64,000 bases of DNA from NCBI RefSeq assembly GCF_022557175.1, contig NZ_CP092915.1, positions 1,364,001 to 1,428,000 on the forward strand, given 5' to 3'. Origin of the DNA: Mycolicibacterium sp. YH-1. GTDB taxonomy: Bacteria; Actinomycetota; Actinomycetes; Mycobacteriales; Mycobacteriaceae. Both the position numbers and the translations under genes were made by a program. The notes beneath the pieces are model-generated. The model was not told the DNA's origin and did no database searches. It was given only the letters and a program-made list of their open reading frames with translations. Position 1 is the first letter of the stretch; each line of letters starts with the position of its first letter. Shown piece after piece: positions 58,640-62,534 of this stretch.

Positions 58640-58847
58640 CGCCGGCGTCGCTCGATCGCGGCCTCTCGAGCGGGCGAGATCTTTAGCAGTTCGAAAGACC
58701 CTTCGGCGCAGTACTTCTCAGGCGCTGCGTCTTTCCCCTTTATTTAAACTTTTGCAAGCGCAAATGGTTCAATGCCACTAGCATCCTCCTGGCCCATTAT
58801 TTTTACCTGGGCGTTAATTATGAGTTCTTCGTTCAGGGGATGGGTTG
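58640..58847. other. AT-rich leader region upstream of the glycine-rich C39-like protein gene
   Basis: This 208-base gap is markedly richer in A/T than its surroundings. It contains the perfect dyad TTTGC-AAGC-GCAAA at 58751-58764, the hairpin-capable GCCCA...TGGGC around 58790-58812, and TTAATTAT near 58814 as a possible -10. AGGGGA at 58835-58840 is the ribosome site for ATG 58848. No gene is seen. Confidence 0.5.
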
Positions 58848-61800
58848 ATGTCTGAAATGCCTGAGTCGCGCCAGAGTGGCGCCACGCGTCGTCGTTCCGA
58901 GGACTTCAAGGTGCGGAACTGGCTCGTCATGGGTGCGGCTTCGGCCGGTGTCGGTGCCGCGCTCGTCGTGATGGGGCCGGCCGCGGTTGCCGCAGCCGAC
59001 GACGGCGGCTCCTCGTCGTCGTCGAGTTCGTCCGACTCGTCGAGTACATCCGGCTCCAAGACCGAGTCGGGGACGAAGACCTCTGACGGGCCGAGATCTT
59101 CTGACGGGCCGAGGTCTTCTGACGGGCCGAAGCACGGCGCTTCCACGAAGGGCGCTGACAAGGACTCCGACAGCAAGGACTCCGACAGCAAGGACTCGGA
59201 TAGCGGCTCGGACGGCAAGGATTCTGGCAAGAAGAATCCCGAGAAGAAGGGCTCGGACAAGAAGCGTTCCGAGCGGGAGGCTGACAAGAACGAGCCCAAG
59301 GGCTCGGCTGCGACCACCGTCAAGCGCGACGCGGACACCACACAAGCCTCGGAGACCGGCAGCACGACTGCCACCACCGCCAGCGCGACAGCGGCAAGCG
59401 CGACGCCCGCCGCGCAGGTGACCGCGAAGGTCACCCCAGCAGCGCTGCCGGTGCCGCACTTCACGATCGCAGCAGTCCCTGGTCTGCCGAAGGTCTACCT
59501 ACCGACGCCCGAGGACTTCGTCGGCTTCTTCATCGGAAATGGCACCGCCTACCGTCCCAACGGCGGGATTCTCGTCGGCAACGGCTACTCCTGGACTGCC
59601 GAAACCTGCCCCACGGTCTGCAGGGGCGGCAACGGCGGGCTGTTCGGCAACGGCGGCAACGGTTTCAACGGTGGTAACGGCGGCTGGGCCGGGCTGGTCG
59701 GCAACGGCGGAAACGGCGGGATCGGCGTGGCCGGTCTCAATGGCGGCAACGGTGGTCGAGGTGGCAACGGTGGTCTGATCTACGGCAACGGCGGCTCCGG
59801 CGGCGCGGGCGCCGAGACCATGAATGGATCCCACGGTGGACGCGGTGGCTCGGCAGGCCTTGTCGGCAACGGCGGTAATGGCGCCAAGGGTGGCACCTCG
59901 CGGGGCGACTTCCGCGGCGGCGACGGCGGCGCGGGTGGCGCGGGCGGCTGGCTGCTGGGCAACGGCGGTTCGGGTGGCGCTGGCGGCAACGCGATCCTGA
60001 ACGGTCAAGTCGGTGGCGCCGGTGGTGCCGGCGGAGACACCGGGGCGTTCTCGTTCTGGGCGATTGCCGGAAACGGTGGCGCCGGCGGCAACGCGAGCTA
60101 CGGCGGTCGCGGTGGCGATGGCGGCAGCGGCGGGATGCTGTCGATGTACGCGGTCGGCGGGAGCGGTGGCACCGGCGGCGACAGCCCGCACAAGGGCACC
60201 GGCATCGACCACGGCGGCGACGGCGGAAACGGCGGCACCGGCGGACTCTGGATGGGCAACGGCGGTGCCGGCGGCGGGGGCGGTGACGGTGGCGGTGACG
60301 GCGGTGCCGGCGGCAACGTCGGACTCTTCTCGCTCGTCGGTCGCGGTGGTGACGGTGGCGACGGCGGGGTGGGCCAGACCGGACTGCCCGGCTCCAACGG
60401 CACGGCGGTAATCATCGACGGCGGCGCGGCAGGGGCCGGCGGGCAGGGCGGCAGCGGAGGCCGCGGCGGCCAGGGCAGCTTCGTCCTCGGCGCCGGTGGT
60501 AACGGCGGCAGCGGAGGCCGCGGCGGCAACGGCGGCAAGGGCGGCGCCGGCTACTTGGGAGCCGACCAGCTGTCCGCGGTCGGTGGTGACGGTGGCCGGG
60601 GAGGCAACGGCGGTGACGGCGGCACGGGTGGCGCCAGCGGTGCCCTCGGTGGCGCGCCCGGCACGGGTCGCTTCCTGTTCTTCGCCCCCGTGACGGGCGT
60701 GCGCGGTGGCAACGGTGACGGCGGCAAGGGTGGCGACGGTGGCGCCGGGGCGGCCGGCGGCTACTCGATGGACCCGAATGGCTCGGCTGGCCCGGGCGGT
60801 AACGGCGGCAACGGAGGCGCCGGGGCACCCGGCGGTGTGAGCTCGGACGACGACACCGGCACAGCTGGCGGTGACGGTGGCAACGGCGGCGTTGGTGGTG
60901 CCGGCGGTGACGGTGGCGCCTTCAACGAGGGCGGCAACGGCGGCAACGGTGGCAACGGCGGGGCCGGCGGCACGGGCGGTGCCAACACCGGGACCGGTAC
61001 GGGCGGAACCGGCGGCAAGGGTGGTGACGGCGCGGCCGCGGGCACCGGTGGCAACGGGACCATTGCCGGAGTCGGCGGTGACGGTGGCAATGGAGCTGAC
61101 GGTGGCGCCGGCGGAAGCTCTAGTGGCGCAGGCGGACTCGGCGGGGACTACGGCGACCGCGGTCTCGGCGGAAAGAAGCCGGACGGGACTCGGGCCGCCG
61201 CTGGTGCTTACGGCGAACCCGGTACCACCGGGGCCGAGGGCGCCGATGCGCCGGTGAGCCTTGCGGTGACCGCGGCCGCACCGCGGTTCAGCGTGCAGTC
61301 GATCTTCGCACCGTTCGCTGGCGTCCAGTCGTTCCTGACCGATCTCGGGAATCGGATCTCATACGTCTTCTTCAATCGGATTCCGGAGATCTCGCCCTCA
61401 CAGGGCAGCCAGGTCAAGGCGACCGGCGAGGTGGTCATCTACCTGAACGGTTCGAGCAACACCTCGTTCGGCTTGAACTACACCGTCGTTCAGGGGCCCA
61501 GGTACGGCACGCTGACTGCCGGTGAGGCCGGCACCTACACCTACACGCCGGACCCGCGGCTGGCGCAGATGGGCATCACCGACTACATCACCGTGCGCGT
61601 GGACAACGGCGCGGCGGCGAGGCTGCCCGGTTTGGCCGGCATGGTGCAGCGCATGCTGCACTCCTTCGCCATCATGGTGGGCATCGCCAAGCCCGACACC
61701 ATCGAGAAGCGGATTGCGATCACGGTCAGCGGCGATGGGAAGGTCGGCAACGCGCAGTACGCCGCGCAGCACTACTGGACCAACCAGAGCTTCGACAACT

Positions 61801-62378
61801 GCGTGCTGCAGGCGACGTCGATGGCCGTTGCGCAGGCCACCAACACCACCCCGCGATCCGAGCAGTACATGGTGGACCTCGCCAAGGCCACCGACAGCGT
61901 GACCCAGCCGGGCGCGAAGATGTACCTCGGCGAGAACATCTCGGACGGTGTCTCCGGCGGGGATGCGGTCGCCCTGATGAACGAGCATCTCGGTGTCAAC
62001 GCCACCTTGACGAAGTACTACTCGGTCGACGCGGCCGGTAACCAGGTCAGCACGATGCAGGACGGTCAGGCGGCGCTGAACGACATGATGGCGGCACTGG
62101 CCCTCGGCAAGGCCACGATGGTCACTTACTCGGTCGCGATCGTCTGGTCTGCGGCCTGGGGCTACGTTCCCGACGAGGACACGTCCTACTGGGGTGCCGA
62201 TCACGCGGCAGTGGTGACCGAGGTCGATCTGGAGAACGGCTTCGTCTACGTCAACGACAGCTCGGCCGGGTACGCCGGGCAGCAAACCGGCAGGGGCATG
62301 AAGATTGGTCTCGGTGCCTTCATGTCGGGTTGGCAGTCGGGTAACTACGCCTTGACCACCGTCGAGGCACGGGTCTAA
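58848..62378 (+). CDS. Exported PGRS-like glycine-rich protein with cadherin-like and C39/papain-like C-terminal domains
   Basis: The 1176-residue protein has five regions. Residues 1-46 are a signal peptide or anchor ([22 protein letters not shown], then [10 protein letters not shown]). Residues 47-200 are a Ser/Asp/Lys-rich linker with short repeats (SSDGPR, SKDSD). About 255-780 is a glycine-rich GGxGG/GGNGG domain like the PGRS part of PE_PGRS proteins, but there is no PE domain. About 850-920 is a beta domain ([24 protein letters not shown]...ITVRVDN) of the cadherin-like kind. About 965-1176 resembles a C39/papain-type peptidase with Cys985 ([10 protein letters not shown]), His1119 (WGADHAAVV) and Asn1136/Asp1137 (VYVNDSSAG). 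ATG 58848 has AGGGGA seven bases upstream. Proteolytic activity is an inference. Confidence 0.75.
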
Positions 62379-62397: not shown

Positions 62398-62424
62398 CGG
62401 CCGCCGTGGTTTCCACGGCGGCCG
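62398..62424. terminator. Strong bidirectional hairpin terminator
   Basis: A perfect 12-base stem (CGGCCGCCGTGG / CCACGGCGGCCG) with a TTT loop lies 20 bases after the large gene and is followed by CTCTGTCTTTA. It sits eight bases from the stop of the Cys-rich gene on the other strand, so it can end both transcripts. Confidence 0.85.
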
Positions 62425-62432
62425 CTCTGTCT

Positions 62433-62534
62433 TTACTTACGTGCGTTGCAGTTGGGCGGGTTTCCGCAGTGGTGTCCGCCGTCGCAGGCGTTACAACGAC
62501 AGGTGCAGGATCCCTTGGTCTGGGTAGTGCGCAT
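62433..62534 (-). CDS. 33-residue Cys/His-rich peptide, metallothionein-like
   Basis: The reading frame starts at ATG 62534 with AAGGAG (62545-62550) ten bases upstream and ends at TAA 62433. The peptide has six cysteines (10, 12, 14, 17, 23, 29) and two histidines (21, 22) arranged C-x-C-x-C-x2-C, GGHHCG and PPNC. No hydrophobic stretch is present. The spacing is that of a small metal-binding protein. It is not the mycobacterial metallothionein MymT, which is longer and differently spaced. A 12-base palindrome of the kind bound by ArsR/SmtB sensors lies 25 bases upstream. Metal binding is inferred, not shown. Confidence 0.65.
   Translation of the reverse strand: MRTTQTKGSCTCRCNACDGGHHCGNPPNCNARK

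What the first reader, a model, noticed from the sequence alone, without database searches (positions are those of the whole stretch)
58848..62378. PGRS-like glycine repeats without a PE domain, joined to a cadherin-like and a C39/papain-like domain
The protein has an ordinary signal peptide, not a PE domain. About 520 residues of GGxGG repeats separate a charged, Ser-rich linker from a C-terminal region with Cys985, His1119 and Asn1136/Asp1137 in papain/C39-like contexts. This suggests a surface or secreted cysteine peptidase carried on a PGRS-like stalk, an arrangement I do not recognise as described. The repeats and low-complexity linker are read directly; the peptidase call is pattern recognition.
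Basis: partly seen in the sequence, partly recalled or inferred. Interest (0 to 1): 0.78.

Follow-up and report, generated by a model that had tools for sequence, protein, structure and literature searches.

The report
Surface peptidase on PE-less PGRS stalk
This mycobacterial gene encodes a probably exported protein in which a papain-like (C39-type) enzyme domain sits on a glycine-rich PGRS stalk that has an ordinary signal peptide instead of the usual PE export domain; similar PE-less PGRS proteins carrying other enzymes were found in related mycobacteria.

Summary
The gene (ATG 58848, stop ending 62378, 1176 aa) encodes a signal peptide, Ser-rich linker, about 565 residues of GGx repeats, a weak Big_9/cadherin-like domain and a C39/papain-like domain; no PE domain. 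In 34 full-length proteins (window's plus 33) Gln980, Cys985, His1119, Asn1136 and Asp1137 are invariant. Profile comparison with C39 families aligns Cys, His and Asn-Asp. Structure prediction failed and was then switched off, so the fold is inferred and activity untested.

It is not a one-off. I found this architecture in 14 of 148 sampled genomes of the genus, all with 8 or fewer PE matches; its domains group together in a tree. The window's genome has four PGRS matches in four proteins; all look signal-peptide-led and none has PE. In seven other genomes, 0 of 54 PGRS matches share a frame with a PE match. Other such proteins carry GH5, CMD or a PecA-type protease domain.

Best reading: a signal-peptide PGRS class that holds enzymes at the cell envelope. 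PGRS plus protease is known (PecA); this export signal and C39 cargo were not found in the papers searched.

The parts
58836..58841 (+). ribosome-binding-like AGGGGA ahead of ATG 58848
   Evidence: read in sequence; no experimental evidence
58848..58997 (+). signal peptide, residues 1-50, cleavage inferred at AVAAA|DD
   Evidence: hydropathy plus AxA motif; A48, A50, D51 invariant in the 34 aligned proteins. No SignalP available; Sec versus Tat not tested
58998..59534 (+). Ser/Asp/Lys-rich low-complexity linker, residues 51-229
   Evidence: sequence; tandem repeats of 15 and 18 bases
59535..61229 (+). PGRS-like glycine repeat block, residues 230 to about 794, 46% Gly, period 3
   Evidence: PF21526 18.5 bits in hmmscan, cut-off 27; 34.6 bits with neighbours in the frame in the genome search
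59607..59621 (+). invariant Cys254 and Cys258 in the N-terminal cap of the PGRS block
   Evidence: invariant in the 34 aligned proteins; disulfide is inference
61362..61730 (+). Big_9/cadherin-like domain, about residues 839-961
   Evidence: PF17963 18.1 bits, below cut-off 23.6; 9 of 15 C-terminal pieces match at E 0.1
61731..62375 (+). C39/papain-like domain, residues 962-1176
   Evidence: alignment A3; hhalign to PF03412 and PF13529 members
61785..61787 (+). Gln980, probable oxyanion-hole Gln
   Evidence: invariant in 34; aligned to the Gln of PF03412 members
61800..61802 (+). Cys985, probable nucleophile
   Evidence: invariant in 34; 76 of 81 related domains
62202..62204 (+). His1119, probable catalytic base
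   Evidence: invariant in 34; 78 of 81 related domains
62253..62258 (+). Asn1136-Asp1137, probable third catalytic residue
   Evidence: invariant in 34; Asp in 80 of 81 and Asn in 78 of 81 related domains
62398..62424 (+). intrinsic-terminator-like stem-loop after the gene
   Evidence: 12 pairs, 11 G-C

Best explanation
A signal-peptide-exported protein in which the PGRS block is the cell-envelope platform and the C-terminal C39/papain-fold domain is the working enzyme, spaced by a Big_9-like domain. Steps: (1) an N-terminal signal peptide directs export (inferred from sequence, conserved); (2) the Ser-rich linker is flexible (inferred); (3) the GGx block folds as a polyglycine-II sandwich whose hydrophobic turns sit in the mycomembrane, as proposed for PE_PGRS (published model, not tested here); (4) Cys985, His1119 and Asp1137/Asn1136 with Gln980 form a cysteine-peptidase active site (homology and conservation shown, activity not). 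Substrate unknown. It belongs to a wider class of signal-peptide PGRS proteins, seen here in mycobacterial genomes with few PE proteins, whose C-terminal cargo differs: C39, GH5, CMD, or a PecA-type aspartic protease.
For: Q/C/H/N/D invariant in 34 full-length proteins; all five in 73 of 81 other non-redundant domains. 28 of 43 domain rows match Peptidase_C39_2 at E 0.01, best 4.5e-9; 2 of 4 chosen proteins exceed its cut-off (31.7 and 34.3 bits against 24). hhalign to three PF03412 members (probability 90.1, E 1.6e-6) and to 11 non-mycobacterial PF13529 members (88.5, E 2.7e-6) puts Cys, His and Asn-Asp in register. PGRS length nearly fixed: 607 plus or minus 17 residues from PGRS start to the FFN motif in 34 proteins. 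Fifteen hydrophobic clusters between residues 242 and 610 (P0001 numbering) are evenly spaced, mean 26, CV 0.25: 0 of 20000 free random placements and 4 of 20000 with a minimum gap of 9 are as even. PE in 0 of 34 full-length members. Own genome: four PGRS proteins, none at a PE match and all signal-peptide-like by eye. Seven genomes reached through loci: 54 PGRS and 24 PE matches, none in one frame by my comparison of the tables; of 30 PGRS loci read, 29 show an N-terminus (28 different genes) and none looks like PE.
Against: No structure prediction could be completed. The window protein alone matches no C39 profile (member 1), and of the 34 full-length proteins only 3 match Peptidase_C39_2 at E 0.01, best 0.003; NCBIfam gives one weak C39 hit in 43. 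No PDB sequence match better than E 0.14. Export, envelope location and activity rest on sequence and analogy. Autocorrelation of hydrophobic residues in the window PGRS is not significant (p 0.126). PF21526 is below cut-off in hmmscan for the window protein and reaches E 0.01 in only 10 of 34, so this PGRS is divergent. Two genes of this clade have broken frames and one relative in it (L087) has no PGRS at all.
Confidence: 0.65

Rival explanations
1. A papain-fold enzyme that is not a peptidase (acyltransferase, deamidase or transglutaminase type), displayed on the same stalk.
For: Weak hits of some relatives to BtrH_N, an acyltransferase-type papain fold (2 of 15 at E 0.1; 3 of 43 at E 0.01). 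Two of the PDB profile matches, azinomycin proteins Azi29/AziU3 at E about 0.9, align over His, Asp and Trp, but at that E they may be chance.
Against: 28 of 43 rows hit Peptidase_C39_2, only 3 hit BtrH_N; profile alignment to C39 families is good.
Confidence: 0.15
2. The C39 domain cuts Gly-Gly bonds in PGRS stalks, its own or its neighbours', so it trims or sheds PGRS proteins, much as PecA processes PE_PGRS proteins.
For: Canonical C39 peptidases cut after Gly-Gly (recalled, no call); here the domain rides on a protein with 105 overlapping GG pairs and genomes hold several PGRS proteins; PecA is a surface protease that cleaves itself (abstract opening of PMC6819658, seen in the listing).
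Against: Related domains occur in proteins of about 220-800 aa without PGRS, so PGRS is not needed as substrate; a folded block may resist cleavage.
Confidence: 0.1
3. Non-enzymatic adhesin: the C39 fold is a binding domain with a fossil active site.
For: Five of 81 related domains have lost Cys (three of them also Gln, two also His), so the fold can persist without it.
Against: 0 of 34 full-length proteins of this architecture lost any of the five residues.
Confidence: 0.05
4. Artefact: mis-called start of an ordinary PE_PGRS protein.
For: PMC11939664 (section 7) calls the N-terminal annotation of M. smegmatis PGRS proteins questionable.
Against: Only about 7 in-frame codons lie upstream of TTG 58845 (open frame 1184 aa); no PE match; the nearest PE matches in the genome lie elsewhere; the same N-terminal pattern in relatives.
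Confidence: 0.02

Closest known systems
PE_PGRS35 / PecA (PF20729, NF038019), surface aspartic protease of pathogenic mycobacteria
   Same: PGRS block with a C-terminal peptidase domain, modelled to ride on the mycomembrane (PMC9436101, parts 1-2 of 3 read)
   Different: PE domain and ESX-5 export, aspartic protease; here signal peptide and C39/papain-type cysteine domain plus a Big_9-like domain
PE_PGRS family
   Same: GGx repeats of period 3, a PGRS start cap
   Different: no PE domain; repeat block of nearly fixed length; found in genomes with few PE matches
Peptidase_C39_2 (PF13529), 'C39 family peptidase' of mycobacteria
   Same: domain homology; Q/C/H/N-D pattern; stand-alone relatives mostly of about 230-250 aa
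   Different: no PGRS in those relatives
Peptidase_C39 (PF03412), bacteriocin ABC-transporter peptidase
   Same: active-site residues align
   Different: no transporter domain here; signal peptide; cleavage specificity unknown
PGRS-fold proteins of M. smegmatis and related Mycolicibacterium noted in PMC11939664 (section 7 and passages read)
   Same: PGRS in non-pathogens; N-terminus suspected not to be PE
   Different: the review leaves the N-terminus open; the words protease, peptidase and cadherin do not occur in its main text; I could not identify its two genes here

Membership tests
PE_PGRS | N-terminal PE domain (PF00934) | tested here: not met
   No match in window protein; 0 of 34 full-length proteins
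PE_PGRS | PGRS repeats (PF21526) | tested here: inconclusive
   18.5 bits in hmmscan, cut-off 27; 34.6 bits when matches in the frame are summed; Gly period 3
PE_PGRS | ESX-5 dependent export and surface location | not testable with these tools
   signal peptide predicted instead
Peptidase_C39_2 / C39-like (clan CA) | match to the family profile | tested here: inconclusive
   window alone none; 28 of 43 domain rows but 3 of 34 full-length proteins; hhalign 88.5% to PF13529 members
Peptidase_C39_2 / C39-like (clan CA) | Cys, His, Asn/Asp in the family's positions | tested here: met
   Gln aligned only
Peptidase_C39_2 / C39-like (clan CA) | papain-like fold with the residues adjacent in space | not testable with these tools
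   structure jobs interrupted, then tool switched off
Peptidase_C39 (PF03412, GG-leader peptidase) | fusion to an ABC transporter | tested here: not met
   no ABC domain in the protein; no PF03412 match in own genome
Peptidase_C39 (PF03412, GG-leader peptidase) | cleavage after Gly-Gly | not testable with these tools
   needs assay
PecA (PF20729) | aspartic protease domain | tested here: not met
   no match in the window protein
Big_9 / bacterial cadherin-like | match over curated cut-off | tested here: not met
   18.1 bits, 20.6 in the cut piece, cut-off 23.6; relatives reach E 6e-8

The most novel reading that the evidence does not exclude
PGRS is a general mycobacterial cell-surface platform that does not need PE or ESX-5. 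In lineages with few PE proteins the same module, with the same GRPL(I/V/L)GNG start motif in several members, is exported by an ordinary signal peptide and carries interchangeable enzymes (C39 peptidase, GH5, CMD, PecA-type protease). The C39 version arose once, when a PGRS block was placed between the linker and the Big_9-C39 part of an already exported peptidase, and PE_PGRS proteins would be the ESX-5-exported branch of the same design.
Probability: 0.5. Interest if true: 0.72.

Novelty: new variant of a known kind. Interest (0 to 1): 0.55.

Why it matters
PE_PGRS work has treated PE and ESX-5 export as part of what makes a PGRS protein, and the family as mostly a trait of pathogens. Signal-peptide PGRS proteins in mycobacteria with few PE proteins let one ask directly, in harmless laboratory strains, whether the PGRS block alone places a protein in the mycomembrane and what it does for the enzyme it carries. 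A PecA-type protease domain on a PE-less PGRS protein (L156) in a genome with one PE match also questions whether PE cleavage was that domain's original job.

Tried and rejected
PDB sequence searches gave nothing credible (best E 0.14). A search with residues 860-1177 inside the whole protein scored only 8000 candidates and gave two Ig-repeat proteins covering 9-10% of the query; the domain alone found two proteins; the alignment found 2069. Synteny: none of 52 loci shared the divIC-, DUF501- or ppx-like neighbours; two gave remote acyl-CoA-synthetase hits of 27-28% identity, so neighbourhood says nothing on function. Autocorrelation of hydrophobic residues in the window PGRS was not significant. 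A first test of cluster spacing used 14 of the 15 clusters printed; I repeated it with all 15 and a stricter null. The PE regex fired in two proteins (L054, L069); the Pfam scan reported PE in none, so I take these as chance; the signal hit of L070 is spurious (contig cut). An exact insertion point for PGRS was considered and dropped: a PTP[EQDN] motif precedes PGRS in only 13 of 34.

Rows dropped: frames were kept as full length if they had at least 60 GG and at most 1350 residues, near-identical ends once (38 with the window's). This leaves out L073 (2143 aa), the second frame of L064, short or cut frames (L053/L080, L061) and L042/L046, whose frame is broken. For A6 four more were left out (L108, L070, L110, L082). 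The 34 differ slightly (L070 in, L069 out). Domain set: 107 hits, 81 after removal of identical or short pieces; the window's domain is not in it. A3 took 42 of the 81 plus the window. Tree: window plus 80, L110 left out. A5 took 11 of the 30 PF13529 loci. Of 20 PGRS regions fetched by choice my filter printed frames from 16; L162, L165, L170 and L171 failed it for few GG and were not read.
Full report
What is there. It has an AGGGGA about six bases before the ATG and a strong terminator-like stem-loop just after the stop. It follows a ppx-like gene and is followed, on the other strand, by a small Cys-rich ORF and an acyl-CoA-synthetase-like gene (gene names by recall of family features, no search). 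The genome is a single contig of 7.27 Mb; the 32 loci with record titles found with the family are named Mycobacterium, Mycolicibacterium, Mycobacteriaceae or uncultured/unnamed actinobacteria.

Domains. Residues 1-50 look like a signal peptide ending AVAAA|DD; A48, A50 and D51 are invariant in the 34 aligned full-length proteins, the window's included. Residues 51-229 are a Ser-rich charged linker. Residues 230 to about 794 are 46% glycine with period 3 (lag-3 autocorrelation 0.48, shuffle maximum 0.17 in 5000). The Pfam PGRS model scores 18.5 bits in hmmscan (cut-off 27) and 34.6 bits with neighbours in the frame. The block starts with a conserved cap holding two invariant cysteines, 254 and 258. 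From its start to the FFN motif of the next domain lie 607 plus or minus 17 residues in 34 proteins, range 550-637, although PE_PGRS blocks are described as varying from a few tens to over a thousand residues (PMC9436101). Then come a Big_9-like domain (18.1 bits, cut-off 23.6) and the C39-like domain, residues 962-1176.

Is the last domain C39-like? The window protein alone matches no C39 profile, and only 3 of 34 full-length proteins do at E 0.01, best 0.003. Cut-out domains do better: 28 of 43 match Peptidase_C39_2 (best 4.5e-9); of four chosen proteins two exceed the curated cut-off, one is below and one has no match. The alignment finds 2069 database proteins; most of the 120 listed carry PF13529, and several are named C39 family peptidase. 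Profile-profile comparison with three PF03412 transporter peptidases from the phylum gave probability 90.1, E 1.6e-6, with Gln, Cys, His and Asn-Asp in register; with eleven PF13529 members from other genera of the order, probability 88.5, E 2.7e-6, with Cys, His and Asn-Asp in register. In 81 further non-redundant domains Gln is kept in 78, Cys in 76, His in 78, Asn in 78 and Asp in 80; 73 keep all five. The eight exceptions are: the first domains of tandem proteins L103 and L104 (Gln, Cys and His lost), two of four neighbouring paralogues in L107 (Cys lost, one also Gln), the first domain of L073 (Cys to Thr), a broken frame (L110), and the two stand-alone proteins of the window's own genome, which replace only Asn (L006, L007). 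All five residues are invariant in the 34 full-length proteins. No spatial check was possible because structure prediction failed and was then switched off.

How widespread. The domain has a match in 79 of 148 sampled genomes of the genus. Reading the frames behind the 40 regions fetched, mostly the stronger hits, I found the PGRS-Big_9-C39 architecture in 14 of the 148 genomes (G000, G003, G004, G009, G019, G024, G032, G043, G053, G085, G093, G098, G106, G136). This is a lower bound, because weaker hits were not all read. These 14 have 0-8 PE matches. Named carriers with the long frame include Mycolicibacterium litorale, M. rhodesiae JS60, M. komossense, M. sphagni ATCC 33027, M. vinylchloridicum and Mycobacterium kyogaense. 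In the tree of 81 domains all 41 PGRS-bearing rows lie on one side of a branch with support 99/93, together with three rows without PGRS in the same frame (the count of label changes is therefore 4, not 1, and the root is by midpoint only). Two of the three (L042, L046, one genome) have a long GG-rich frame just upstream in another frame, that is, a broken frame; the third (L087, 266 aa) has no GG-rich frame in its 16.7 kb, so PGRS is lost or never was there. A single origin among exported C39 proteins without PGRS, with one loss and two breaks, is the simplest reading.

A class of signal-peptide PGRS proteins. The window's genome has four PGRS matches in four proteins and none lies at a PE match: this gene; one with two CMD-like repeats by eye, of which one matches the CMD model (L113); and two made of signal peptide and PGRS only (L114, L115). 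In seven genomes reached through the loci there are 54 PGRS and 24 PE matches, and by comparing places none share a frame. Of 30 PGRS loci read, one is cut at its 5' end, two are the same gene, and none of the remaining 28 genes looks like PE; most show a basic stretch, a hydrophobic stretch and an AxA-type end (L214, L223, L225 and L232 are less clear), and several continue into a GRPL(V/L)GNG motif like that described for PE_PGRS (by eye). From other genomes I chose and fetched 20 PGRS regions and read frames from 16. PE_PGRS proteins are there too (L160, L168, L172, by eye). L154, L155 and L166 carry a GH5 domain, and L156 carries the PecA-type aspartic protease (PF20729, 193 bits; NF038019, 153 against a cut-off of 150) behind a signal-peptide-like start, without a PE match, in a genome with one PE match. 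The PE model also rings in the E. coli control, so single weak PE matches should not be over-read.

How it probably works. Export by signal peptide; PGRS block as polyglycine-II sandwich anchored by hydrophobic turns, as Berisio and Delogu propose for PE_PGRS (PMC9436101, parts 1 and 2 of 3 read); Big_9-like spacer; C39-like domain as enzyme facing out. In the window protein 15 hydrophobic clusters lie between 242 and 610 (P0001 numbering), mean spacing 26, CV 0.25; 0 of 20000 free random placements and 4 of 20000 with a minimum gap of 9 are as even. This fits such an edge, although simple autocorrelation is not significant (p 0.126). Export, surface position, activity and substrate are inferences.

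Literature. Searches for PGRS with signal peptide, C39 and Mycobacterium (0 papers), PGRS with signal peptide and Mycolicibacterium terms (5 listed), PGRS-like, C39 family peptidase with mycobacteri (unrelated) and PGRS with Sec signal peptide and cadherin-like among other terms (10 of 19 listed) showed no title or abstract opening on this architecture; most subscription journals are not held. PMC11939664 (section 7 and passages read) reports PGRS-fold proteins in M. smegmatis and related species, calls their N-termini questionable and asks for confirmation of a PE domain. The present data suggest an answer: in the relatives read here the N-terminus is a signal peptide. PE_PGRS35/PecA is the closest described analogue (PMC9436101; PMC6819658 abstract opening seen in the listing).

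Verdict. A real, conserved protein family; new variant of a known kind (PGRS plus C-terminal peptidase), part of a class I did not find described in the papers searched.

Noticed in passing
62433-62534, - strand: 33-residue Cys-rich ORF (six Cys) with an RBS-like AAGGAG, resembling a small metallothionein; name by recall, not by a search.
   Followed up: no
L156:2799-4757:+: PecA-family aspartic protease domain (NF038019 over cut-off) on a PGRS protein with a signal-peptide-like start and no PE match, in a genome with one PE match.
   Followed up: partly
L154, L155, L166 (also L153, L157, L159, L161, L163, L164, L167 by eye): Signal-peptide PGRS proteins with a C-terminal GH5 / endoglycoceramidase-like domain.
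   Followed up: partly
L113:1488-4496:- (own genome): Signal-peptide PGRS protein with two CMD-like repeats by eye, one matching PF02627.
   Followed up: partly
L103, L104 (L105 by eye): Tandem C39 proteins whose first domain has lost active-site residues while the second keeps them: active plus pseudo-enzyme pairs.
   Followed up: partly
L107: Four neighbouring exported C39-like genes, two of which have lost the Cys.
   Followed up: no
L073: 2143-residue frame with two C39 domains and about 190 GG pairs; the first domain has Thr in place of the Cys.
   Followed up: no
P0030: C39-like domain fused to a PknH-like extracellular domain (PF14032).
   Followed up: no
L042, L046 (genome G136): Two copies of this architecture with the frame broken inside the PGRS region; cause (sequencing or decay) unknown.
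   Followed up: partly
L087: 266-aa relative nested among PGRS-bearing rows of the tree but with no GG-rich frame in its 16.7 kb locus.
   Followed up: partly
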